Origin: Nitrososphaerota archaeon
GTDB lineage: Archaea > Thermoproteota > Nitrososphaeria > Nitrososphaerales > Nitrosopumilaceae
Assembly (NCBI GenBank): GCA_028867755.1
Contig: JAGWFT010000002.1
Location: 62,001-126,000 of the forward strand
Length of the DNA: 64,000 bases
Direction of reading: 5' to 3'
A model generated the notes under the pieces. That model was not told where the DNA came from. It did not search any database and worked only from the letters and a program-made list of their open reading frames with translations. Shown here piece after piece: positions 39,107 to 51,262 of the stretch. How positions within the stretch are numbered: the stretch's first letter is position 1; each line of letters starts with the position of its first letter. The position numbers were made by a program, and so were the translations under genes.

Positions 39107-39120
39107 TTTAAAAAGTCTTT
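39107..39120. repeat. left attachment repeat (attL core)
   Basis: TTTAAAAAGTCTTT, perfect 14-bp direct repeat of 51249-51262. Read on the minus strand it supplies the TATA box of trpS. The integrase gene begins about 50 bases inside. Confidence 0.7.
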
Positions 39121-39169
39121 ACGGGATGGAACATTAGGGTTTAAAATTACTGTATTCCATAACTATGAT

Positions 39170-40270
39170 ATGGATAGAAGTTTAACAAGATTTTTTGCAG
39201 GTATCAGAACAGAAACGACAAGAGAAATTTATGATAGGTATCTTAGGTATTTTCTAAACTTTGTAAAAATAAAAGAGGCTAACGGATTGTTGCAACTCAA
39301 AGACTCTTACCTTCAAACTATGGTAGAAGATTACATCATACATCTGAAAGGTAGGGGCTTACGCAAATCCTCGATTGACGGGCAAATTTCAGCATTAGAG
39401 TTATTCTTTGCTATGAATGACAAGATATTGAATTTCAAGAAAATTCGCAAGATGTCGCCTATTCAACTAAAGATACAGGGAAACGGCTCTTACACAACAG
39501 ATGACATTAAGCGTATGTTAGAGGCTACCACATCGTTAAGAAACAAGGCTATAATTCACTGCCTTGCGAGTTTGGGTTGTCGCCCTAATGCGTTCTGCGA
39601 TCCGCCGTTAAGATTGAGGCATCTAAAAGAGGTCAAGGATGGATATTATTCAGTTCTAATGTACGAAGGCAGTGTCGAGGAATACAGAGGATACCTTACA
39701 AAAGAGGCTTCGATTTTGGTGAAAATGTATATGAACGAGAGGTCAAGGCAAGGCGAAGTAATTACACCTGATAGTCCACTCTTTCGAAATCTGTATCGTG
39801 TGGTCTTGTCTAAAGCCAAGCCTATGACCATAAAAGGAATCAAGTCCATGATTTTAGAAATTCTCAAAAAGATGCGGGGCAAAGGCAAGAAGAGAGGAGA
39901 GAGGTATGATACTGCGATGATTGGAGGGTTTAGACATCGCTACATCGAGATATGTGCAAAAAACAGGCTAGATGTTAGGTTAGCGGAGAGATTGGTATCA
40001 CATACACCAAAGAGCGCACCGATGGACAAGCATTATGTAAATATCAATAACATACAGGATGAACTCTTTAACGAGTTTTTAAGAATTGAAAGAGATCTTA
40101 CTATCTCAAAAGAAGAGAAGGAACGACTTGGAAGAATTGAAGCGGAGAAGAAAGTTACAGAACTTGAAAATGATAAAGATAAACGTATCTCGGAATTAGA
40201 AGCACAGGCAACAGAGACAAGAGATATGATTAAGGGCATTTATGCTCTCTTGGGAAGAGACACGACTTAG
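39170..40270 (+). CDS. tyrosine recombinase / integrase
   Basis: 366-residue site-specific recombinase from the preferred ATG at 39170; an in-frame upstream extension to 39059 overlaps trpS and the att site and is unlikely. A SAM-like DNA-binding domain (about residues 1-100: TREIYDRYLRYFLNFVK) precedes the catalytic domain. Catalytic residues: Arg in LGCRPNAFC, the H-x-x-R-type GFRHRYIE, a later His in LVSHTPKSAP and the nucleophilic Tyr in DKHYVNI. The C-terminus is a coiled coil (RIEAEKKVTELENDKD). It should catalyse integration at the 14-bp repeat. Confidence 0.88.
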   Translation: MDRSLTRFFAGIRTETTREIYDRYLRYFLNFVKIKEANGLLQLKDSYLQTMVEDYIIHLKGRGLRKSSIDGQISALELFFAMNDKILNFKKIRKMSPIQLKIQGNGSYTTDDIKRMLEATTSLRNKAIIHCLASLGCRPNAFCDPPLRLRHLKEVKDGYYSVLMYEGSVEEYRGYLTKEASILVKMYMNERSRQGEVITPDSPLFRNLYRVVLSKAKPMTIKGIKSMILEILKKMRGKGKKRGERYDTAMIGGFRHRYIEICAKNRLDVRLAERLVSHTPKSAPMDKHYVNINNIQDELFNEFLRIERDLTISKEEKERLGRIEAEKKVTELENDKDKRISELEAQATETRDMIKGIYALLGRDTT

Positions 40271-40992
40271 TTGTTTTTTTTAAATTTATTATAAAGAAAT
40301 TTTGTTTGTTGATTTACATTCTTTACTGTTTTTTTGTCATAAGGTGAACCTATCAATGCATTTAGTTTTTTGTAAAGTTGTTTATCAAACCCATATTTTT
40401 CTGCAAACTTGAAATTAAGCCTTATCATGCCTTCGGCAAATCTCACTTCAGAACTATCCGTGACTTTTTTTGAAAAACCATCTATCATGTTTTTTTGATT
40501 TAATTTAGATAATTCATTTAGAAGATTAAAGATATATGGTGCTGAGATTTCTGCTTTCTGAGACGGTGTAAACTTTGGATTGTCGTAAACCTCGAATCTG
40601 AGTAATTTTTTGGCATCGTTTGCAATACTTGGGGTTTTAACAAAACCATCGTCATCAAGGCTAATTTTGAAATAATAACGTGGATGTTTTGACTCTGGAT
40701 TAATTTTCTTAAGTTTGTTGTGTTTGCGAGCATGTAGCAAAACATCACGCAAGCTTGAATCGGAAAGCCCCGTACCCTTTTTAATTTCTGAATGAGTTGA
40801 TTCCCCATGTATGGCTAGGTAATCTGAAACAAGACACCAGTTTAGAACTTCATCTTTTTGCATCAAAGGTCTAATGAATTCGCTCCATTTGTGAGATTTG
40901 ATGGCTTCTGCAATTTCTCCCAAAATTAATTCACTAACGATATGCAATAAAGATGTTTTAACTCTTATGAAAAATTCGTAACATAATGTCAT
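40267..40992 (-). CDS. winged-helix regulatory protein of the element
   Basis: About 240 residues. A central winged helix (WCLVSDYLAIHGESTHSEIKKGTGLSDSSLRDVLLHARKHNKL) identifies it as a DNA-binding protein; the C-terminal half is helical and basic. The start is uncertain (an ATG also lies at 41025) because a large inverted repeat covers 40991-41025. It ends 4 bases into the integrase gene, convergently. Likely controls element gene expression. Confidence 0.65.
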   Translation of the reverse strand: MTLCYEFFIRVKTSLLHIVSELILGEIAEAIKSHKWSEFIRPLMQKDEVLNWCLVSDYLAIHGESTHSEIKKGTGLSDSSLRDVLLHARKHNKLKKINPESKHPRYYFKISLDDDGFVKTPSIANDAKKLLRFEVYDNPKFTPSQKAEISAPYIFNLLNELSKLNQKNMIDGFSKKVTDSSEVRFAEGMIRLNFKFAEKYGFDKQLYKKLNALIGSPYDKKTVKNVNQQTKFLYNKFKKNN

Positions 40993-41025
40993 GTTGTAAC
41001 AGCATGTGCATGTGATGTACAACAT
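40991..41025. promoter_or_regulatory. inverted repeat at the regulator start
   Basis: ATGTTGTA at 40991-40998 and TACAACAT at 41018-41025, perfect 8-bp arms with a 19-base spacer that contains GCATGTGCATG. It lies between the regulator and the divergent gene at 41074, the expected place for an autoregulatory operator. Confidence 0.55.
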
Positions 41026-41073
41026 AGGTCTGAAATGTTATGGTGTTATTAATTTGAAAAATATCGATTAAAC

Positions 41074-41391
41074 ATGGCAACAACTAGTATTGTATTCTGT
41101 CCTTGTGGATGTGGACTTGAGATAGACAAAGTTCCACTAATTGAGATTCTATCACATGCTAGAAAAGCCTGTCAGAAAATATTAGGAGAATGGAAAATGC
41201 AAAATGAAACAAAAACAAGTTGGCAATACGGTGTAGCCTTCAACAAAATACAATCCTTCTTTCAAAGAAAGGCTACTTGTCCGTTAGCTGACTGCAAACA
41301 GTATGTTGAGGCACACACAATGATAGAGTGCGTTCAGCACTTGAAGAGTTACCTCAACTCAATTGAATTGGAAGGTGGGCAACCAAAATGA
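41074..41391 (+). CDS. cysteine-rich hypothetical protein of the element
   Basis: 105-residue protein with CPCGCGLEID near the N-terminus (a compact Cys cluster) and CPLADCKQYVEAH later, together able to bind zinc. It overlaps the next gene by 4 bases, so the two are coupled. No family recognised. Confidence 0.6.
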   Translation: MATTSIVFCPCGCGLEIDKVPLIEILSHARKACQKILGEWKMQNETKTSWQYGVAFNKIQSFFQRKATCPLADCKQYVEAHTMIECVQHLKSYLNSIELEGGQPK

Positions 41392-41900
41392 AAACTATTA
41401 GTGTTGTTGCTCTAATCTCAATTCTACCATTTATTTTTTTTACAAATAACGCAAACGCCTACGTTGAAAACATCCAACTACAAGACCAATCTGGAAATAT
41501 GGTTGCTGTTGGATTGGATAATCCAAGTATAACTGCAATTGAACAGGGTTGGGTTTATGGTTCTGTGCAGACAAGCAATACCCAAGTTGTTCAGAATACA
41601 GGTATGTCGGACTTTGTTTCGCAGATAAAGCCGACACCACTTGGTTCAGAAGTTGACTTTGCTGGAAAGTTGGACAGCACAGCCACTATCAGACTTGTAG
41701 ACAATTCTGGGCAAAGTTGGAGTCTGATCTTGGAACCACAAGTGGGGAAGAAGACTAGCCAAGATGCAAGCAGTGGTAGTATGCCAAGTGTTACAGATGT
41801 CCCATACTACGTCTATGGGATAGTGGGACTGATTGGTGTTGGAACAATCCTACTAATCAGAAGGAGGAAGAGGGAAATTGGTGAAATCAGCAGAGTCTAA
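41388..41900 (+). CDS. exported single-pass surface protein
   Basis: 170 residues: signal peptide (ISVVALISILPFIFFTNNANA), an external beta-rich domain, a Ser/Gly-rich linker, then a C-terminal membrane helix (YYVYGIVGLIGVGTILLI) and basic tail (RRRKREIG). This signal-ectodomain-anchor layout is typical of surface-displayed proteins. It lies between the Cys-rich protein and the tubulin-like gene, overlapping the latter by 20 bases. Confidence 0.7.
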   Translation: MKTISVVALISILPFIFFTNNANAYVENIQLQDQSGNMVAVGLDNPSITAIEQGWVYGSVQTSNTQVVQNTGMSDFVSQIKPTPLGSEVDFAGKLDSTATIRLVDNSGQSWSLILEPQVGKKTSQDASSGSMPSVTDVPYYVYGIVGLIGVGTILLIRRRKREIGEISRV

Positions 41901-42891
41901 ATTTTTCACCGATCCTTTTCAACTGGCTAGCATCGGTATTGTAGCTGTTGGAGATACTGCCTGTAAACAGGCGGAGCAGTTCAGCAAGATACTGCACAAA
42001 CATGAAGCAATATACCAAGTCGGAGTAGTGGCATTAGTCAAAATCTCTACCGAAGTCTACGAAGATGCAAAACAAATAGCAAAACGTTTTCCAAAAAAAG
42101 AAAGACACAAGGTAGTTGGAATCTGTGCCAAGAACACCACACTGATTCGGGAGTTGGAAAAGTCTGAAGAGTTTGCAGAGAGCAAGCGAGGAGTCTGGCT
42201 ACCGAAACTAAAAGACGGCATAGACAGGATCGTAGAACTTCTTGAAACGCATCAGGTAAGCATAGTCGTTGTCTATCTTGGTAGCGGAGGTCATGCAACA
42301 CTGGGCAGGGAACTCATAACCATTCTCAAGGAAAGATATACGGGCGTTCACTTTGTCGTGGTTTTATGCAAACCATATCACGACAAGTTGTGTGAACCCA
42401 TCTACAAAAACAACCAAAAATTTGTCGTAAAAGGTGGAACTCTCAGTGTAATCTTTGAGAGTGAACTCGTAGAGAACTCGTTTGAAGCAAAAGACATTGA
42501 AAACAACACGAGTCTGTTTGCACTTCTCAACGAGAGAAAGACAGCCACTAACAAGTCTGCACCAGATATGCTGAGATTGATGGAGGCACACAAGCAATAT
42601 GTCATCAAGACCGCAGTGCGAAGCAATCCGATTTATCGCAAGCAGGGACTACTATGGGATACAACAAACAATCACAGAGATGTTACAACCGACACAATCG
42701 TGAGAGGAATCAAAGAAATCGGGATATGTCAAGACTGCCTGTATGTAATATCTGGAAGGACAACAGATGGGCAAATCAAGAATGGAATAATGCAAATCGG
42801 CAAAGGTGGCAAGGGCTTTGATCTAAACTACAGGTTACTGCCAACTGAAAAAAACGACACTCTGCTCATTGGGAAGTTTGAGCCATGCTGA
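41881..42891 (+). CDS. divergent tubulin/FtsZ-fold protein
   Basis: 337-residue protein with GTG start preceded by AGGAGGAAG (a strong ribosome-binding site). The order of elements follows tubulin/FtsZ: opening strand and loop (IGIVAVGDTACKQAEQF), a second strand (VGVVALVKIS), KVVGICA, then VSIVVVYLGSGGHATLGREL, in place of the FtsZ glycine loop GGGTGTG, and the following strand HFVVVLCKP and LSVIFESELV. The loop (residues 133-142) is altered, so GTP binding is uncertain. It may form filaments for positioning or segregation of the element. Fold assignment is by pattern, not search. Confidence 0.55.
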   Translation: MKSAESKFFTDPFQLASIGIVAVGDTACKQAEQFSKILHKHEAIYQVGVVALVKISTEVYEDAKQIAKRFPKKERHKVVGICAKNTTLIRELEKSEEFAESKRGVWLPKLKDGIDRIVELLETHQVSIVVVYLGSGGHATLGRELITILKERYTGVHFVVVLCKPYHDKLCEPIYKNNQKFVVKGGTLSVIFESELVENSFEAKDIENNTSLFALLNERKTATNKSAPDMLRLMEAHKQYVIKTAVRSNPIYRKQGLLWDTTNNHRDVTTDTIVRGIKEIGICQDCLYVISGRTTDGQIKNGIMQIGKGGKGFDLNYRLLPTEKNDTLLIGKFEPC

Positions 42892-43002
42892 CCTATCATT
42901 TTTTATTTATTTCTGTGTATACTATTATTGGTAGATTAAATCAGACACATACCAAGAGATATTCATTATGCCAAATGGCTTGCTACCATTTCTGCACTGA
43001 TT

Positions 43003-44787
43003 TTGTTAGTGTATCTGCATTACTGGTTTGTTGCTGTAGTGATTGGTGGTAGTATTATGGGTTGGAAATTCTGGCAGACAAGAGAAGAATATGATAACTA
43101 TCTTGAAGGTGTCATAAGGCGAGTCGAAAACAAAGGCTTGCATAACTTCTTGCAGGTAGTAGCTGATCCCGTACATCCAAAAGGATTCAACATAATAGAT
43201 GAAACGTTAGGTCAACTAAATCAGAACATTCTCATAAATGGTTCTGCAAGAAGTGGAAAAACATGGCTTGGAATGTATCTTTGTTTAAAATTACCACATA
43301 GGAAAATCATTCTCTCTTTCAAAAAATTTCAGAGTAATAATAGAGACTTTGATATTGGTTACAAGTGGATAGACGTATCACAGTTTTTCCCAAACTTGTT
43401 CGCTGACGGGCAAAGTTTTTGTGAGGCATTTCGTTGCGCTTTCTTTAGCGATTTATCAAGTCGTGGACTTATGATCGATACGATCTTGTCTAAGGTCAAT
43501 GAAGTAATTGAGCAAGAGCCTAAGAACTTTGACGAATTCTTCAAGGCACTCGATAGAGTAGCAAAAAGTGGTCAGTGGGATGCCAACATTACAAACATTG
43601 TAAAATCAAAAGTCAAGAAATTACAGGTTGAGGGTGCAAAGCACGGCAGTATTAATTTTAGACAGGGAAACATAGTGTTAGATCTGGGAAATCTTCCAGA
43701 TGATGAGGTAAAGTCCTTTGTAGCCGAGTTATTTTTGAGACAGATAAACAGGATTGAAGAACAGGAACAAAACACAGAGAAGGTCTATGTTGTCATAGAC
43801 GAGGCTTGGCACATTCTAGCCAGCAAACAACAAAAGTCTATCATAGGAACGATGTTGCTTCAGGGTGCTTTCTATATTCAACTTATCATAATTACCCAAA
43901 ACTATACGCATCTTGATGAAGATTATCGGGGGCATTTCGGTTCTCATTTTTGCTTTAGAAATACAAACGATAAGGATTCAAAAGCGATTGAGGCTGGCTA
44001 TGGTGCGTTTGTCAGGGATGGGGTTAGACAATTACCAGATTTTTGCTATACTAATCTTAGATATCAACATGGAGAAAATATCTTACCATATTGGAAATTA
44101 AATTTTGAGAAATTGGAGAGGTTAATACAAGAAGCAAGACAGACTCATGTAGCAGAAGATAACCCACAGGCTGATTTTGTCAGTGATGGAAATAATGTTT
44201 GGAAGGATGGAGAAGAAAAGAAGAAGGATGAAACAAAAGAGAAGGAAAATTTGGAAGAGAGGGCTATTGACGTTCTCAAAAAAAGTGAGGTGGCTATGTA
44301 TGGATATGAACTTGGCAAGGCAGTTGGCGTTAAACCAAAAGATGTAACTACCAGAAGGAAAATTCTAAGAAAACTTTTAGAAGACAATAAAATAAAAGAA
44401 TGGATTTGTCAAATACGAAATGAAGAAGTTTCATACTACTACCTGATTAACGATGGTCGTGATGTATGCCATAATCTTATGACAAGAGAGACAAAGAAAA
44501 AGTTTGGAGACTGGAAGATTATTTTCGAGGCATCGCAGGGAACAGGAGGCGCAGATTTTGTAATACTACGAGAGAAAGATGGAAAGAAAATTGCCATCGA
44601 GTGTGAAACTAGTTTAAAGAAGGACGCCTCGGATCTGCGTGAAAGGATTGAAAAGAACCTTGCAGATGGAATTGACACAATAATTATGAGTCCTACAGAA
44701 GCGGTCAGAGAAAACTATTCTGCTTTGTTTGAGTGCAAATGCTGTCTTATTTCTGAATTGGAGATATTGAAGAATTGGAAAAAGTAA
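43003..44787 (+). CDS. HerA-type ATPase with winged helix and PD-(D/E)XK-like nuclease domain
   Basis: 594 residues. An N-terminal membrane segment (about 4-24; the reading frame stays open and hydrophobic back to 42940, so the true start may be earlier). FtsK/HerA ATPase core: Walker A GSARSGKT (80-87), Walker B VYVVIDEAWH (261-270), sensor LIIITQNY. A charged linker (EEKKKDETKEKE) leads to a winged helix (about 420-480). The last ~100 residues resemble a restriction-endonuclease fold: GGADFVI with Asp517, IAIECETS with Glu532 and Glu534. Such ATPases pump DNA; the fused nuclease suggests DNA transfer or defence. Confidence 0.75.
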   Translation: MLVYLHYWFVAVVIGGSIMGWKFWQTREEYDNYLEGVIRRVENKGLHNFLQVVADPVHPKGFNIIDETLGQLNQNILINGSARSGKTWLGMYLCLKLPHRKIILSFKKFQSNNRDFDIGYKWIDVSQFFPNLFADGQSFCEAFRCAFFSDLSSRGLMIDTILSKVNEVIEQEPKNFDEFFKALDRVAKSGQWDANITNIVKSKVKKLQVEGAKHGSINFRQGNIVLDLGNLPDDEVKSFVAELFLRQINRIEEQEQNTEKVYVVIDEAWHILASKQQKSIIGTMLLQGAFYIQLIIITQNYTHLDEDYRGHFGSHFCFRNTNDKDSKAIEAGYGAFVRDGVRQLPDFCYTNLRYQHGENILPYWKLNFEKLERLIQEARQTHVAEDNPQADFVSDGNNVWKDGEEKKKDETKEKENLEERAIDVLKKSEVAMYGYELGKAVGVKPKDVTTRRKILRKLLEDNKIKEWICQIRNEEVSYYYLINDGRDVCHNLMTRETKKKFGDWKIIFEASQGTGGADFVILREKDGKKIAIECETSLKKDASDLRERIEKNLADGIDTIIMSPTEAVRENYSALFECKCCLISELEILKNWKK

Positions 44788-45680
44788 AAATTCCTAGAGA
44801 CTGGTCTAGAGTCAGGGATGCCATAGTCAGCCGTATTCTGGGGTTTACTACAACATCAGCTAATGCAAAACCATATCGAGACAAAAAGGGAGACTTGGTT
44901 ATACCGATGGGTCACGACGGGGCTTGGCTGATTATATGCATGATGCTCTCAACTCTCATTTTTGCTGGCATCTTTCGTATATCTGGGATGAGTCTTGCAG
45001 AAACGCAGACAGAGTTTCCAAAGTATGATGCTGAGTGGATTTTTCTTATAATGGTCTTATTCCTTTTGCCAAGAATAGTTTTCAGAGGAATTTTAGGCTA
45101 TAGAGATATCCCTAAAGGTTGGACAAGAGAACAGGCTGAGGCTTTTTTTAATTTACAAGGAGCGAGGTCAAGGTGGAAAAGCCTTCTAGAAGAGGTGCTT
45201 GCATGGTTTCCTCTGATAACTTGTTTTAAAATAATTAACAATGTTGGCAAACAAGTTGGTGGTAAGGATTGGAAATTTGGCAGGTGGCTAGTAACTGTTT
45301 TTGCGTGGATGGTTGGATATTATGCATTTTTTAGACTGGTGTTTTGGGTTGAATCTTATGTAAAAGACGCAACGTTAAGCACGTTACTTCCAATAAGTGC
45401 GATAGTCTTTGCTATCATAGCACCTATAGTTTATGCAAGGAAAAAATATCTCACACATTTCAAGAATAACAAAAGATCTCTTGTTGAAGCCTATATGGAA
45501 ATAAAACATGGAAGGCGATGGAGAGTGTGGCTTTATGCATTTATTGGCGTTGGATTGTGCGGTGTTCCCTTGATGATGTATTTTGGGATTGACAAATTAT
45601 TATTTAGCGTGCCAGCCTATTTTGGATTACTTGTTTTCTGTGCATTGAAAGGCAGAGGAAAGTTAAGAAGAAAAAACTAG
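44775..45680 (+). CDS. polytopic membrane protein of the element
   Basis: 301-residue protein, TTG start, overlapping the ATPase gene by 13 bases. It has five to seven hydrophobic helices (around 50-68, 88-105, 140-155, 168-190, 205-222, 255-275) joined by basic loops, and a basic C-terminus (GRGKLRRKN). The tight overlap suggests it acts with the ATPase, perhaps as a membrane channel or anchor. No family recognised. Confidence 0.65.
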   Translation: MEKVKIPRDWSRVRDAIVSRILGFTTTSANAKPYRDKKGDLVIPMGHDGAWLIICMMLSTLIFAGIFRISGMSLAETQTEFPKYDAEWIFLIMVLFLLPRIVFRGILGYRDIPKGWTREQAEAFFNLQGARSRWKSLLEEVLAWFPLITCFKIINNVGKQVGGKDWKFGRWLVTVFAWMVGYYAFFRLVFWVESYVKDATLSTLLPISAIVFAIIAPIVYARKKYLTHFKNNKRSLVEAYMEIKHGRRWRVWLYAFIGVGLCGVPLMMYFGIDKLLFSVPAYFGLLVFCALKGRGKLRRKN

Positions 45681-45754
45681 TATCTTTTACTTGAAGTGTA
45701 GAACCCAGAGCGAGGCTTCTTAGATGTTGTGTTTCTAAATAATATTGTGATGAA

Positions 45755-46174
45755 ATGGAAAATGAAACACCACAGATTGAGGAGAGGTATAGGAGACTAT
45801 ACAGAAGTTATGAAACAGAAGACAAGAAAAGGTCTTACGACCTGTTTGTAAGACAGGACAAGAGCAGGACAACGGTATCAACCATACAGAGCGAGAAGAT
45901 CGCAGAAGGCGAGGAAAAATCAATCTCTGTATTTCTCCGAGAAGAGAACCACATAATCTCTATTGAGGTCTGGACGGGCTTTGTAGGTGATGTTCTCAAA
46001 AAGTACGAGCGTCAGTATACTGGACGAGTGGATTATGACATTGGAGCTCTCTTTATGAGCGAGATATACGACAACGCACTACGCATCAACAGCAGGACGC
46101 CATCGGTTGCAAAGGTCTCGGAAAAAATAATAGACTTTGCAAAAATGCACAGGGAGAAGCAGAAATCATTATGA
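45755..46174 (+). CDS. hypothetical protein of the element
   Basis: 139-residue highly charged protein, mostly alpha-helical at the N-terminus (IEERYRRLYRSYETEDKKRSY) with a strand-helix core (ISVFLREENHIISIEVWTG). It overlaps nothing and begins a second small gene run. Function unknown. Confidence 0.55.
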   Translation: MENETPQIEERYRRLYRSYETEDKKRSYDLFVRQDKSRTTVSTIQSEKIAEGEEKSISVFLREENHIISIEVWTGFVGDVLKKYERQYTGRVDYDIGALFMSEIYDNALRINSRTPSVAKVSEKIIDFAKMHREKQKSL

Positions 46175-46175
46175 A

Positions 46176-46415
46176 ATGCGACAGAAAAATAGACAAATCA
46201 AGTATGCACTTGTGTTACTACAAGTTGGTCTTTTAGCAAGTGCATTTTTTCTTTTCTTTGGTCTAGTGGCGATGATGCTATATCTAATTGGTGAAATTAG
46301 CATCGCTGAGATTGTTGATTATTTGCTACTTTCTACTACGTGGGAGAGTGTGGGAATAACATTTTTTGAAGGTTTGATATGGATTGCGTTTAAGAAAAAT
46401 AGGTCGAAAAAATGA
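46176..46415 (+). CDS. small two-helix membrane protein of the element
   Basis: 79 residues from the ATG at 46176, chosen over a TTG at 46137 that overlaps the preceding gene. Two membrane helices (about 10-40 and 52-70) and a basic end. It overlaps the next microgene by 4 bases. Confidence 0.5.
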   Translation: MRQKNRQIKYALVLLQVGLLASAFFLFFGLVAMMLYLIGEISIAEIVDYLLLSTTWESVGITFFEGLIWIAFKKNRSKK

Positions 46416-46537
46416 TAGACAATATATTGAATTTCCTACTTGGATTGATTGATGGTACTTATGATAATGATGAAGATGTGAATGAAAAACTAAAGGTGAT
46501 TGAACGAGAAAAATTAAAGAGTTTAAAAAGAAAATAG
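46412..46537 (+). CDS. 41-residue microprotein of the element
   Basis: Microprotein with a hydrophobic N-terminus (IDNILNFLLGLIDGTY) and a charged helical tail (NEKLKVIEREKLKSLKRK). Its ATG overlaps the preceding stop as ATGA, the same coupling seen elsewhere in the element. Confidence 0.4.
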   Translation: MIDNILNFLLGLIDGTYDNDEDVNEKLKVIEREKLKSLKRK

Positions 46538-46560
46538 ATCCACGATCCTGCAAGCATAAG

Positions 46561-46677
46561 ATGCTTGTCTATTATCGGAGAAGGTATGGAAATGTAGTAT
46601 GGGAGTTCTGGCGTTGCCTTGATTGTAAAAAAATAGTTCGCAAGGCAATATGGAATGTAAAGAATTTCTTTGGTTAA
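46561..46677 (+). CDS. possible zinc-binding microprotein
   Basis: 38 codons from ATG 46561, aromatic and basic, with CLDC. The frame is open upstream to about 46504, where CKH adds a further potential Cys/His pair, so the real start may be non-canonical and earlier. Low confidence. Confidence 0.3.
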   Translation: MLVYYRRRYGNVVWEFWRCLDCKKIVRKAIWNVKNFFG

Positions 46678-46726
46678 ATGGTAGGTGTGTGGGCTTACTC
46701 TTTATTCGACCCACACGGAGAGTAAC

Positions 46727-46924
46727 TTACTTTGTTTTGTCTGGTTCTTTTCTTAGAAGGTGCTGATATGGGCTAGGGCGGTACATTGTTACTACCCCAT
46801 GACGAATCATGTCGTCCATTATTTCGCTGTCCTTCAAAGGACGCTGGCAAAGTCTACAATAGACTCTGTACGTCCAATATGGTCTTCTATTTTCATAGAA
46901 GGTTCTTGGTTTGTTGTTTTCCAT
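46727..46924 (-). CDS. small Cys-containing protein
   Basis: About 65 residues from the Met at 46924 (an upstream Met at 47005 is possible). Aromatic-rich opening (TFYENRRPYWTYRVYC) and C-x2-C (CRLCQRPL), like a treble-clef or zinc-ribbon fragment. It is divergent from the restriction gene. Function unknown. Confidence 0.4.
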   Translation of the reverse strand: MENNKPRTFYENRRPYWTYRVYCRLCQRPLKDSEIMDDMIRHGVVTMYRPSPYQHLLRKEPDKTK

Positions 46925-47093
46925 TTCCGTTACCTCGCCTAGTTTCTTAGGCAGTATTATTACTATAATCCTGCACTTTAAGTTATCTTCAAAAACAAAT
47001 GTCATTGTAATGAAAATGAGCGAAGCCTAAAGACGACCAGTTTTATCATAACCTTAAATCTCTCAAATTATCGAATAAAATAAGAGAATTCGT

Positions 47094-50069
47094 ATGGATC
47101 TAACAAAAGAAAATCTGCATGTTATCATCAGCGAATTTAGAGAATGGTTCAAGGGCAATGATGGTCAGAGGCATTTCAATAACATAGAGAAGGAAAAACA
47201 AGATGTAAAGGATCTCATGAAAAAACTAAAACCAATGGATAAGAACTCGCCAGAGTTCGTTGACTGGGTTCTATATGGGTTGCTACCTTATTTTAAAACA
47301 AAATTTGCAAAACGTGTTAGTACATTTCCCGTATTTCTAAACATAAAACTCTTCCTTAAAAATCGTAACGAGGAAGATTGGACAATATTGGCGAATATGA
47401 TATATGATCTTGCTCACAATTTTCAAGAAACGCCCAATAAGTTAGATATCTGGATTAAAGATTTTATTTCTGACAAAGCTCGTAGTAGAATGATTCAGTG
47501 TGGCACAATATCTCCGATAATATTTTGTATCAACGAATCGTTCCCAGTAGTGAATAACAGGGTCAGACATACCTACAATGAATTTGCAACTGTTTTTGGT
47601 TGGAATGATATCATGTCTCAGAAATTAGAACACTATTTGGACAATGTAAAAAAATGTCAGAAACTTATTGATGCATTAGGTGTTGAAGAACTTAGAAATC
47701 TTACCATTTTTGATGAATTCTGTTATTGGTATGATTATATTTACAAAGGAGAAAACGATGAGGAAGAAGAAACTGAATCTGATGTTGAGGTAAAGACAAG
47801 AGCTGAGGAAGTTAATCTTCCAATGTTTCTTGAGTCTGCACAATTAAGTAATCTAGCTAAATTTGAACCGCATTCGCTACGTAATCCAGAGAGAATCAAA
47901 ATCGACCAGATTATTTCTAATGCTTCTAACGGTAAATGGGTTCTACCAAATTTTCAAAGATATTTTGATTGGAAGAAGAACGATGTCAAGGAATTACTAA
48001 AATCAATATTCAACGATTATTATGTAGGAGCACTTCTTCTGTGGGATGTCGGAAAAGAACCAGAATTAGATCCTATGCCCATCATGGGTGTGGATATTAG
48101 AAAGGACGAACTCAAACCAAATTCTATCATTTTAGACGGGCAACAAAGGATTACATCGCTTTATTACGCACTGAGAGCGCCTAATTTTCCATTGCGGGGT
48201 AGTAGCGCACCTCTCTATTTTTACATTAACTTTTCTGAATTTTTTAATCAAAATGAGTCGAGTGACATTATAGAAATATTACCGAGAAAATTGGGCAGAG
48301 ATGAATCTTTTAAAAAAAGACTGTTTCCATTCTATGAATTAGAGAAGTATTCTGAATGGGTAGATGGTTTTGAAGATTTTATGTTGAAGGCTTCAACAGA
48401 CCAAGATAAGATAAGATCTATTAGGAGAATCATCGACAAAAAATTAAGGCATGTAATAGACGGTTTTGAAATTCCATATATCTCTCTTCCAGAAACAATG
48501 GAATTACCACAAGTAACCGATATTTTTGAAAAAATAAACACGATGGGAAAAGTCCTTAGCGTATTTGATCTTTTGATAGCTAGACTTAGCAAATACGAAA
48601 TAGAATTGAAAACACATTGGGAGGAATCCGTTAAGCGATTCCCTAAATTGCTTGAATATTACAAATCAATAGATAAGATACCCATTTACATCCTTCAGGC
48701 AATTTCCCTCTGCTATAATAAAACTAGTTCTTGTAAAAGAGAAGATATTCTAAATATATATCAAAATGTTTTTGAGCCTACAGATCTTTCCTTTGAGGAA
48801 ATTTGGAACGAGATGACAGAATACTTGAACAAGGGCATATTAAAAATTGAAAATCTGAGAGATGGGTTTGGTGTTAAAGACAGAAATGAGTTGCCGTTTG
48901 CTCCTATGATTCCTATACTGGCAGCCCTAACTAAGGAAATTGAATCGAGACATAACAAAGTCGACTGTTACAAAAAACTTGGCACATGGTACTGGACATC
49001 AGTCTTCTCTAATGCATACTCTGGTGCTGTTGATAGCCAGTTAACAGCAGATTTCAAGGAAATGAAAGATTGGTTCTCCGATGATACTAAGATTCCAAAA
49101 ACAGTAGATAGAGCTAGGAGAGAATTTGCCACGTTGAATCTTCGTGAAATACAATCTAAATCAAGTGCGATGTACAGAGGAGTCTTGTCACTTTTAGCGT
49201 TGGAAGGAGCTAATGACTTTAACACTAATCAAACCCTTGAGAATGCCCGAAATAACGATAAAGACCACCTGTTTCCCAAAGCTGAATTTCATTCTATGAG
49301 GAATGTAAATTCTATTTTAAACATAAGCTGGATGTCTGATGAGACCAACAGGAAGATTAAGAGATACAAGAAACCCTCCGCTTATGTCAAAGAGTTCATT
49401 AAGGAAAAATATGGCGGAAATGAAAAAGAATTTTTGAAAGTTTTGGAAAGTCATTTCATAAACAAAAATGCCTATGATTGTATGTTAAGAGATGACTTTC
49501 AGGGTTTCATTTCTGAACGCGAAAAAGTCGTTCTTGGTAAGATTAAGAATGCGATCGGTCTTGAAGGTACTGTACAAGACCACACTCTGATAACTCCAGA
49601 GCAACCATTTTCAAATCGTGTAGCTTTCTGGAATACGATAAAATCCTGTGATAGTTATATTTACTGGGTCGATAAATATTTCTCAAAGGAAGGACTCGAG
49701 CTACTCTCTCAATCATTGGATACAAACAAAACAAAAACTGTAAAGATAATCATTTCAGTTGAGAAAGCAGATGAAAAACTAAGAAGTCTCTTCAAAGACT
49801 TTAGAGAAGAGATGAAAAACAAGAATACTATCTGCGAGCTCAGGGTGATAACCGATTCTAAGTTGAAATCAAGTATACACGACAGATGGATATTGTCAAA
49901 GAACAGTTGTTTTAACATACCGTCGCCTGACACAGTAGCGAGAGGTCAGTACAGTGAAATAAAAGCCACAGAAAACAGACCTCCTTTCGATGATTGGTGG
50001 ACGAGAAGCCTCGATATAATCAACAATTGGAATGAAATTCAGAAAAGTAAAGAGATAATTTCAAAATAA
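47094..50069 (+). CDS. GmrSD-like (DUF262-DUF1524) restriction protein with PLD-like C-terminal domain
   Basis: 991 residues in at least four parts. Residues 1-255 are a helical N-terminal region of unknown family. DUF262 follows: LPNFQRYFDWKKNDV near 283-297, YVGALLLW, and ILDGQQRITSL at about 344-354, the NTP-site motif. The DUF1524 HNH-type nuclease carries DHLFPKAEF at about 724. Residues about 835-991 resemble a PLD-like domain (YIYWVDKYFSKEG, IHDRWILSK). GmrSD enzymes cut phage DNA with modified cytosines. The long N-terminus and added C-terminal domain are unusual. Confidence 0.8.
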   Translation: MDLTKENLHVIISEFREWFKGNDGQRHFNNIEKEKQDVKDLMKKLKPMDKNSPEFVDWVLYGLLPYFKTKFAKRVSTFPVFLNIKLFLKNRNEEDWTILANMIYDLAHNFQETPNKLDIWIKDFISDKARSRMIQCGTISPIIFCINESFPVVNNRVRHTYNEFATVFGWNDIMSQKLEHYLDNVKKCQKLIDALGVEELRNLTIFDEFCYWYDYIYKGENDEEEETESDVEVKTRAEEVNLPMFLESAQLSNLAKFEPHSLRNPERIKIDQIISNASNGKWVLPNFQRYFDWKKNDVKELLKSIFNDYYVGALLLWDVGKEPELDPMPIMGVDIRKDELKPNSIILDGQQRITSLYYALRAPNFPLRGSSAPLYFYINFSEFFNQNESSDIIEILPRKLGRDESFKKRLFPFYELEKYSEWVDGFEDFMLKASTDQDKIRSIRRIIDKKLRHVIDGFEIPYISLPETMELPQVTDIFEKINTMGKVLSVFDLLIARLSKYEIELKTHWEESVKRFPKLLEYYKSIDKIPIYILQAISLCYNKTSSCKREDILNIYQNVFEPTDLSFEEIWNEMTEYLNKGILKIENLRDGFGVKDRNELPFAPMIPILAALTKEIESRHNKVDCYKKLGTWYWTSVFSNAYSGAVDSQLTADFKEMKDWFSDDTKIPKTVDRARREFATLNLREIQSKSSAMYRGVLSLLALEGANDFNTNQTLENARNNDKDHLFPKAEFHSMRNVNSILNISWMSDETNRKIKRYKKPSAYVKEFIKEKYGGNEKEFLKVLESHFINKNAYDCMLRDDFQGFISEREKVVLGKIKNAIGLEGTVQDHTLITPEQPFSNRVAFWNTIKSCDSYIYWVDKYFSKEGLELLSQSLDTNKTKTVKIIISVEKADEKLRSLFKDFREEMKNKNTICELRVITDSKLKSSIHDRWILSKNSCFNIPSPDTVARGQYSEIKATENRPPFDDWWTRSLDIINNWNEIQKSKEIISK

Positions 50070-50253
50070 TCCACAGTTTGTTTAGATCTTCGATAAGAAA
50101 CTTGTTACCGCCTATCTTGTTAATACCTCCGTAAAAGGTAAGGCTTGTCAATTACTGTTTTTCTCGAACTATAGTTAAGAGTTCCTTGATTTACAAGCCA
50201 ACACCCAACATCTGCTATTGATTCACATCCCAAAGGGTGAGCCGAAGGCTCGC

Positions 50254-50517
50254 TTAATCCTTACCATATACTTGTTTATGACTGCCAACTCTACGCAGTT
50301 CTATTGTATTGTTTACAAAATCAACCGAGTAGATAATTCTATTACTCTTATCAAGGTTGTAGGCATATACTCTTAGACTCTGTTTGTAGTCGCCTAATTT
50401 TGTAGGATTTTCAGACTTGACTAATTCAGCGAGTACCGAGTCAACTCTTTTTTGAAAATCAGAACTCAATGACTTGTATTGTTTGATAAACTTCTTGTTT
50501 GGAGCAAGTATCCACAA
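50254..50517 (-). CDS. RelE/ParE-superfamily toxin
   Basis: 87-residue protein with the RelE fold pattern: KKFIKQYKSLSSDFQKRVDSVLAEL, LRVYAYNLDKSNRIIYSVD, and the end ELRRVGSHKQVYG containing the basic and His/Tyr residues typical of ribosome-dependent mRNA interferases. TTG start at 50517, one base after the antitoxin stop. It would cleave mRNA when freed from its antitoxin. Confidence 0.75.
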   Translation of the reverse strand: MWILAPNKKFIKQYKSLSSDFQKRVDSVLAELVKSENPTKLGDYKQSLRVYAYNLDKSNRIIYSVDFVNNTIELRRVGSHKQVYGKD

Positions 50518-50518
50518 T

Positions 50519-50665
50519 TTAACTATGTAATTCTTTGAGAAGTTCTTCTAAAGTGCTTCGTTTTATCTTGCCTTTGGCTTTATCGGACTCGTATTCTTTG
50601 ATATCTGCTATCTCTTCTGGTGTGAGATCGTCTTCTACTTTGGTCTTCTTTGTGGCTCGTTGCAT
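50519..50665 (-). CDS. antitoxin of RelE-type pair
   Basis: 48-residue charged protein: basic N-terminus (QRATKKTKVEDDL), helix TPEEIADIKEYE and a C-terminal helix STLEELLKELHS that could wrap the toxin. It lies directly upstream of the toxin. Annotated from gene order and size; no DNA-binding motif is obvious. Confidence 0.65.
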   Translation of the reverse strand: MQRATKKTKVEDDLTPEEIADIKEYESDKAKGKIKRSTLEELLKELHS

Positions 50666-50750
50666 GTTACCTTCACTATGTTATAGCATAGTAGAATAAT
50701 TAAAACTATGTGTAACTATTGTAACTATGTTTGACTATTGAAGACGCTCA

Positions 50751-50790
50751 GTCTCAATTCACCCCGTCCCACGGACACCCCTCTTGAGAC
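50751..50790. repeat. hairpin repeat unit, copy 1
   Basis: Outer stem GTCTCAA/TTGAGAC encloses conserved TTCACCCC and ACCCCTC flanks with an inner GTCC-CAC-GGAC stem. Loop flanks match copy 2, while the stems differ but still pair. Confidence 0.7.
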
Positions 50791-50918
50791 TTCGCTTTTT
50801 GTCTAATTGACGAAATCCTCGCTCACCTCTAACACCAGGATCGTAAAACTCTCTTGGTGTTTTTTTGCTTACGCAAAACCGAGGCTCACCGAGGTAGAGG
50901 TAAAATTTCGCAGTTCGT

Positions 50919-50962
50919 TAGCCAATTCACCCCGTCTGCTTTGCAGACACCCCTCTTGGCTA
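50919..50962. repeat. hairpin repeat unit, copy 2
   Basis: Outer stem TAGCCAA/TTGGCTA and inner stem GTCTGC-TTT-GCAGAC with the same TTCACCCC and ACCCCTC internal loop as copy 1. Stem sequences differ from copy 1 by compensatory changes. Confidence 0.7.
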
Positions 50963-51248
50963 TCTCTCTACTTCATCCTAACTTTGTTCGGACGGCACGA
51001 TTTCCTTCGTGCCGTTTTCCCTCTACCTCGCTTCGGACGGCTGCCGTTGGCAGCCTCTCGCCCTTCGGGCTCGCCTCGCTCGGATTTCGTAGGGGTCTCC
51101 GCTTCGCTCCGCACTCCTTCGACTTCGTTGATAGTCGTTTGGCAGGGGTTTGTCTAAGAATATGTTAGAATGGTTGATTTGTGATAAGACAGAAAATTAA
51201 AGGTTGAAGCGTTGGATAGTATGATATTTTAAACCACAAAAAGCATGC

Positions 51249-51262
51249 TTTAAAAAGTCTTT
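51249..51262. repeat. right attachment repeat (attR core)
   Basis: TTTAAAAAGTCTTT, identical to 39107-39120. On the plus strand its TTTAAAAAG is the likely TATA box of pheS, 30 bases before the ATG at 51279. Confidence 0.7.

What the first reader, a model, noticed from the sequence alone, without database searches (positions are those of the whole stretch)
41074..45680. Five-gene coupled module: Cys-rich protein, surface protein, tubulin-like protein, HerA-nuclease, polytopic membrane protein
Consecutive overlaps (4 bases at 41388, 20 bases at 41881, 13 bases at 44775) suggest a module working together at the membrane; only the gap at 42892-43002 breaks the chain, and the frame there is open from 42940. 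Components suggest either a compact DNA-transfer apparatus or an anti-invader system. I know of no described system with this composition.
Basis: inference. Interest (0 to 1): 0.75.

Follow-up and report, generated by a model that had tools for sequence, protein, structure and literature searches.

The report
Archaeal mobile element with DNA pump
The five genes are the core of a 12-kb DNA element that inserted itself between two housekeeping genes of an ammonia-oxidising archaeon; its centrepiece is a membrane-bound DNA pump fused to a DNA-cutting domain, joined in some relatives by a tubulin-like protein, and it most likely moves the element's DNA between cells.

Summary
In detail: five same-strand, mostly overlapping genes at 41074-45680. 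They are the backbone of an integrated element of about 12.1 kb (39107-51262) with 14-bp direct repeats, inserted between divergent TrpRS and PheS; close relatives have the empty site. Both bold calls check out. The 337-aa protein folds like FtsZ/TubZ/tubulin. The ATPase is a membrane-anchored HerA/VirB4-type pump with a C-terminal winged helix and a PD-(D/E)XK nuclease fold. The module is only partly a unit. Tubulin-like, surface and polytopic genes occur in the same four Nitrosopumilus-type elements and nowhere else searched, always beside the ATPase. The ATPase-nuclease itself occurs without the tubulin-like and surface partners in about a dozen further loci, mostly beside tyrosine integrases, and on the free plasmid pPO1 of Picrophilus, another archaeal phylum. 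The conserved core is therefore integrase plus pump-nuclease; the rest is a lineage-specific elaboration. The ATPase core scores best against CedB/TraC/VirB4 DNA-transfer ATPases, and a Thermus element (ICEth1) gives a functional precedent. Best reading: a relaxase-free DNA-transfer device (about 0.5). Maintenance, virus-like packaging and defence remain open. No function has been tested.

The parts
39107..39120 (.). attL: 14-bp direct repeat TTTAAAAAGTCTTT in the TrpRS promoter region
   Evidence: Empty-site alignment with relatives ends here; caveat
39170..40270 (+). Tyrosine recombinase (integrase)
   Evidence: SAM-like N-domain and XerA/XerD profiles; aligned with integrases of the sister elements, 40-50% identity
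40267..41025 (-). Probable winged-helix regulator, divergent from the module
   Evidence: Weak MarR-type hit; same position and strand in L014, L015, L016, L017, L018
41074..41391 (+). Small Cys-rich protein (7 Cys), zinc-finger-like
   Evidence: Sequence; small CxxC proteins at comparable places in L014 and L016
41388..41900 (+). Surface protein: signal peptide, small extracellular domain, C-terminal TM anchor
41878..42891 (+). Tubulin/FtsZ-fold protein (TTG 41878 or GTG 41881 start)
   Evidence: AF2 model and Foldseek: FtsZ, TubZ, PhuZ, tubulin, probability 1.0
43003..44787 (+). Membrane-anchored HerA/VirB4-type ATPase - winged helix - PD-(D/E)XK nuclease; probable N-terminal extension from about 42940
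44775..45680 (+). Polytopic membrane protein, about 6 TM helices
45755..46174 (+). 139-aa conserved element protein of unknown role
   Evidence: 94/74/40% identical in L015, L014, L019
46137..46415 (+). 92-aa small membrane protein, one or two hydrophobic helices
   Evidence: Homologues in L014, L015, L016, L019
47094..50069 (+). Cargo: GmrSD-type (DUF262) protein, candidate defence gene
   Evidence: PF03235 5e-30; PADLOC HEC-05 2e-22
50254..50517 (-). Cargo: ParE-like toxin
   Evidence: 49% identical homologue in L015
51249..51262 (.). attR: second copy of TTTAAAAAGTCTTT, upstream of PheS
   Evidence: caveat

Best explanation
The five genes are the core of a 12-kb integrative mobile element and most likely encode a compact, relaxase-free DNA-transfer device. 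Inferred sequence of events: the tyrosine recombinase excises the element as a circle. The ATPase, held at the membrane by its N-terminal helix and partner membrane proteins, binds element DNA with its winged helix, and its PD-(D/E)XK domain nicks or trims the DNA. The HerA/VirB4-type ring pumps the DNA through a channel that includes the polytopic protein; the surface protein makes cell contact. The tubulin-like protein, present only in some elements, positions or segregates the element or its transfer complex. Shown here: element, boundaries, domain folds, synteny, association with integrases, recurrence of the ATPase-nuclease on a free plasmid. Inferred: excision, DNA binding, nicking, direction of transfer, and the roles of the membrane proteins and the tubulin-like protein.
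For: Integrase, att repeats and empty sites for two elements of the family. The ATPase scores best on CedB 7e-11 and TraC; homologues on CedB, VirB4 or TraC; a canonical HerA in the same test scores on HerA models. Winged helix plus PD-(D/E)XK fold at pLDDT 90. TM helices in ATPase and partners. Same ATPase-nuclease beside integrases in other families of the order and on plasmid pPO1. Functional precedent: ICEth1 needs a HerA/FtsK-type ATPase for DNA donation and is helped by a nuclease, on a 14.9-kb integrative element (PMC5365140); Ced uses TM-anchored HerA/VirB4-type ATPases (PMC11868833).
Against: All profile matches to CedB/VirB4 are far below their curated cut-offs and cover only the ATPase core. 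The polytopic protein has no detectable CedA/VirB6 similarity. No pilin was identified. Excision and transfer are untested. The nuclease usually lacks the canonical lysine, so its activity is uncertain. pPO1 has the ATPase-nuclease without the other membrane proteins.
Confidence: 0.5

Rival explanations
1. Maintenance module: the tubulin-like protein segregates the excised element as TubZ does, and the membrane-anchored ATPase-nuclease anchors, resolves or helps replicate it. No transfer function.
For: Tubulin fold with TubZ among the best matches; no recognisable replication or partition protein elsewhere in the element; ATPase-nuclease kept on the multicopy plasmid pPO1, with no other transfer-like gene recognised there.
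Against: The tubulin-like gene is absent from most elements with the ATPase; pPO1 already has Orc1/Cdc6; surface and polytopic membrane proteins are not needed for partition.
Confidence: 0.2
2. Virus-like or vesicle-borne element: the ATPase packages DNA into membrane particles carrying the surface protein, with the polytopic protein as membrane component.
For: HerA/FtsK-type ATPases package several archaeal viruses (general knowledge); TM-anchored surface protein plus membrane protein; fast divergence of the surface and polytopic proteins.
Against: No capsid or other viral hallmark; no relatives of the ATPase or tubulin-like protein in phage records and none of the ATPase or 139-aa protein in viral contigs by the patterns used; nuclease fused to the ATPase.
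Confidence: 0.13
3. Anti-invader or exclusion system: the membrane-bound pump-nuclease degrades or blocks incoming DNA.
For: HerA-nuclease pairs occur in defence; PADLOC mad8 1e-8 and HerA 0.006 for the ATPase; the element carries a GmrSD-type candidate defence gene.
Against: The module is the conserved backbone while defence-like genes sit in the variable part; constant tie to integrases; no antiphage-HerA match in NCBIfam at E <= 0.01 (window) or 0.001 (homologues), although such models are in the library.
Confidence: 0.12

Closest known systems
Cryptic integrated elements of Thaumarchaeota (Krupovic et al. 2019, PMC6563490)
   Same: Small (median 17 kb) integrase-bearing elements with short att repeats in the same group of archaea
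   Different: That class is described as having no signature gene; here a shared ATPase-wHTH-nuclease marks a family. Confirmed targets here include divergent promoters
ICEth1 / TdtA of Thermus thermophilus (PMC5365140)
   Same: About 15-kb integrative element; integrase, HerA/FtsK-type ATPase plus nuclease, restriction-type cargo; TdtA at the cytoplasmic membrane
   Different: Nuclease is a separate NurA-like protein; bacterial; no tubulin-like protein. Sequence relation not tested
Ced DNA-exchange system of Sulfolobales (PMC11868833)
   Same: TM-anchored HerA/VirB4-type ATPase plus polytopic membrane protein; CedB is the best curated profile match
   Different: Chromosomal repair-linked system; no nuclease fusion, no integrase; the ATPases form separate clades
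pT26-2 plasmid family (PMC6972569)
   Same: Archaeal integrative plasmids with a conserved core of membrane proteins and a HerA/VirB4-like ATPase proposed to move DNA
   Different: Seven-gene core restricted to Thermococcales and Methanococcales; no tubulin-like protein reported in the passages read. Sequence relation not tested
Plasmid pPO1 of Picrophilus oshimae (PMC3177234)
   Same: Homologous 658-aa 2TM-ATPase-wHTH-nuclease protein (26% identity over 88% of L014)
   Different: Free multicopy plasmid with Orc1/Cdc6 and a serine recombinase; none of the other module genes

Membership tests
Integrated mobile element (tyrosine recombinase type) | Integrase gene, flanking direct repeats, empty site in relatives | tested here: met
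   sister element; exact right end has the caveat
Ced system | ATPase above the CedB equivalog cut-off (700 bits) | tested here: not met
   41 bits; separate clade
Ced system | CedA/VirB6-type channel protein | tested here: inconclusive
   No profile match for the polytopic proteins; no structure could be run
Type IV secretion ICE | VirB4 and VirD4 pair with pilins (as in thaumarchaeal ICEs) | tested here: not met
   One ATPase only; no VirB4/VirD4 equivalog above cut-off
ICEth1-like transjugation element | Demonstrated DNA donation dependent on the ATPase | not testable with these tools
   Experimental; architecture compared
pT26-2 plasmid family | Seven core genes t26-5p to t26-15p | not tested
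   Sequences not fetched; compared from PMC6972569 only
Tubulin/FtsZ superfamily | Tubulin/FtsZ fold | tested here: met
   All 50 best structural matches shown, probability 1.0, on a modest model
Tubulin/FtsZ superfamily | GTPase signature and catalytic T7 loop | tested here: inconclusive
   Glycine-rich loops present (GSGGH; GGSSGGIGT in L018) but divergent; no T7 motif recognised by eye
PD-(D/E)XK nucleases | Fold | tested here: met
   (best PDB E 2e-3, below usual significance, but consistent nuclease matches in both libraries)
PD-(D/E)XK nucleases | Canonical D...(D/E)xK residues | tested here: inconclusive
   D and E/D conserved in 16 homologues; K only in L014, L017 and possibly L018, E in most others
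Defence system | Match to known defence system proteins | tested here: inconclusive
   Only superfamily-level ATPase hits for the module
Virus/provirus | Capsid or other hallmark genes | tested here: not met

The most novel reading that the evidence does not exclude
A previously undescribed class of minimal, relaxase-free archaeal DNA-transfer elements found in at least two archaeal phyla, built on one membrane-anchored ATPase-winged helix-nuclease protein, a subset of which has recruited a tubulin homologue into the transfer machinery.
Probability: 0.3. Interest if true: 0.8.

Novelty: new variant of a known kind. Interest (0 to 1): 0.58.

Why it matters
Most small integrated elements of ammonia-oxidising archaea are 'cryptic', with no known way to spread. 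A shared pump-nuclease, also on a free archaeal plasmid, gives a signature gene for a family of them and a testable candidate for how they move without a relaxase or a full type IV secretion system. A tubulin-fold protein encoded in the same probable operon as a DNA pump is not described in the papers found here. Two elements integrated in the shared promoter region of divergent housekeeping genes, where the repeat may restore promoter elements on both sides, point to a target type not singled out in the thaumarchaeal survey read here.

Tried and rejected
Sequence-only searches for the tubulin-like protein (Pfam, PHROGs, PDB profile) gave nothing significant; only the fold comparison settled it. 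Viral contigs, phages and all plasmids but one hold no relatives by the methods used. A scan of genome contigs returned only the REEA23 loci. The distant HerA-type hits in G006 (L020) and G228 (L081) are not full-length ATPase-nuclease matches and were set aside. Similarity of the nuclease domain to 'replication-relaxation' proteins and of the ATPase-winged helix layout to Streptomyces TraB are leads from memory, not tested. An ancestral two-copy TTTAAAAAGTC arrangement at the TrpRS-PheS site was considered as an alternative to a true att repeat; the relatives with the most similar TrpRS have the simple site, so the att reading is kept with that caveat.

Full report
Observation. The five ORFs, their overlaps and the gap are as described. 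The window lies in a 1.64-Mb, nearly complete archaeal genome; the closest named genome holding such elements is the MAG Thaumarchaeota archaeon REEA23. Calling it Nitrosopumilus-type is inference from gene content. Only one copy of the ATPase is in this genome.

It is an integrated element. Upstream of the five genes lie a tyrosine recombinase (39170-40270) and a divergent winged-helix-like regulator; downstream lie two conserved small genes (139 and 92 aa) and cargo (GmrSD-type protein, ParE-like toxin). A 14-bp repeat, TTTAAAAAGTCTTT, occurs at 39107 and 51249. In close relatives TrpRS and PheS are divergent neighbours and the alignment breaks exactly at this repeat on both sides. The repeat lies about 26-27 bp from the start codons of both genes, where an archaeal TATA box would be expected if the mRNAs are leaderless (inference). 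Caveat: in four other relatives other genes lie between two copies of the same motif, with some 20 further matching bases beside the right copy, so the exact right end is probable, not proven. A second element of the family (L017) is cleaner: a 16-bp repeat in the divergent promoter region of eIF1, with contiguous empty sites in ten relatives. L016 has a 17-bp repeat in a tRNA gene; L082 abuts a tRNA gene, and L019 and L080 abut tRNA-like sequence.

What the proteins are. ATPase: AAA_10 at 4e-8; profile hits to EccC and HerA structures; among curated profiles CedB 7e-11, then TraC, while homologues L014, L017 and L018 hit CedB, VirB4 or TraC. A canonical HerA in the same test scores on HerA models. 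Eight of these proteins form one clade (100/99) apart from CedB, CedD-like and HerA proteins (the shared C-terminus may contribute). The C-terminal 176 residues fold with high confidence (pLDDT 90) as a winged helix plus a PD-(D/E)XK nuclease (Bax1 and FokI first in PDB, restriction-type and VRR-NUC nucleases in the viral library). A histidine, an aspartate and the acidic position of the third motif recur in 16 homologues, but the usual final lysine is mostly replaced by glutamate. Most Nitrosopumilus-type members have an N-terminal hydrophobic helix. Tubulin-like protein: no sequence match anywhere, but the model, although modest (pLDDT 56, pTM 0.56), matches FtsZ, TubZ, PhuZ and tubulin in all 50 structures shown, with probability 1.0. 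The surface protein has a signal peptide and a C-terminal TM anchor; the polytopic protein has about six TM helices.

Is it a module? L014, L016 and L018 repeat the arrangement at low identity. The tubulin-like family is found in 4 of 250 family genomes, and the surface and polytopic families in the same 4 of 37 genus genomes, always beside the ATPase. The profiles were built from these four, so their own recovery is trivial; the absence elsewhere is the information. The ATPase-nuclease is wider: other elements of the genus (L015, L017, L019, L080), another family of the order (L082), seven further loci (L127-L133), and the free plasmid pPO1 of Picrophilus oshimae. An integrase is in the same locus in most of these; pPO1 has a serine recombinase. 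None of L127-L133 has a detectable tubulin-like, surface or polytopic homologue. The core is therefore integrase plus ATPase-nuclease; the five-gene form is an elaboration.

How it may work. The ATPase belongs by profile to the DNA-transfer side of the superfamily and carries its own DNA-binding and nuclease folds, which could stand in for a relaxase. Membrane proteins follow it in the Nitrosopumilus-type elements other than L080, whose ATPase has three N-terminal helices of its own. ICEth1 of Thermus shows that a 14.9-kb element with a HerA/FtsK-type ATPase and a nuclease can drive DNA donation, apparently without replicating after excision (PMC5365140). Ced shows TM-anchored HerA/VirB4-type ATPases with polytopic proteins exchanging DNA between archaea (PMC11868833). 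pT26-2 plasmids were proposed to use a comparable core (PMC6972569). I therefore favour relaxase-free DNA transfer (0.5), ahead of maintenance (0.2), virus/vesicle (0.13) and defence (0.12). Excision, nicking, pumping and every role of the tubulin-like protein are inferred.

Known or new. The elements would fall under 'cryptic integrated elements' (PMC6563490), a class described there as lacking signature genes. They are not members of Ced or of type IV secretion ICEs by the tests made. The literature searched here did not describe this composition; the library is partial, so absence is not proof.

Start of the ATPase. In the window, L014, L015 and L016 the reading frame is conserved upstream of the TTG at 43003 (window numbering) although it holds no ATG/GTG/TTG there. 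An ATG overlapping or adjoining the end of the tubulin-like gene (in L015, which lacks that gene, at the equivalent position) opens a second frame in the same +1 relation, 17-18 codons before the conserved stretch. A programmed +1 frameshift and a non-AUG start are both possible; undecided.

Noticed in passing
42885-43010; same place in L014, L015, L016: The ATPase frame is conserved at protein level upstream of the only usual start codon, and an ATG-initiated frame in constant +1 relation precedes it by 17-18 codons: candidate programmed +1 frameshift or non-AUG start.
   Followed up: yes
39107-39120 and 51249-51262; L017 near 2700 and 14260: Two elements with related integrases sit in the shared promoter region of divergent housekeeping gene pairs (TrpRS/PheS; eIF1/neighbour); the repeat may restore promoter elements on both sides.
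   Followed up: yes
L027, L029, L030, L031 (TrpRS-PheS region of relatives): Other genes (secreted proteins, one kind with an apparent Hint-like C-terminus) lie between two copies of TTTAAAAAGTC in four relatives: a recurrent insertion or gene-gain spot.
   Followed up: partly
47094-50069: 991-aa cargo protein with GmrSD N-terminal domain; PADLOC HEC-05 and, at the C-terminus, PDC-S05 matches: candidate defence gene carried by the element.
   Followed up: partly
45755-46415: The 139- and 92-aa genes are 94% identical to REEA23 element L015 while the polytopic protein next door is only 24% identical: mosaic evolution by recombination.
   Followed up: partly
L019:4612-6566: The ATPase-nuclease is split into two abutting ORFs, between Walker A and Walker B parts: decayed gene or two-subunit form.
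   Followed up: no
L109:4263-6239 (plasmid pPO1, Picrophilus oshimae): The annotated 'ATP-binding protein' has the same 2TM-ATPase-winged helix-nuclease architecture; a natural free plasmid on which the function could be tested.
   Followed up: yes
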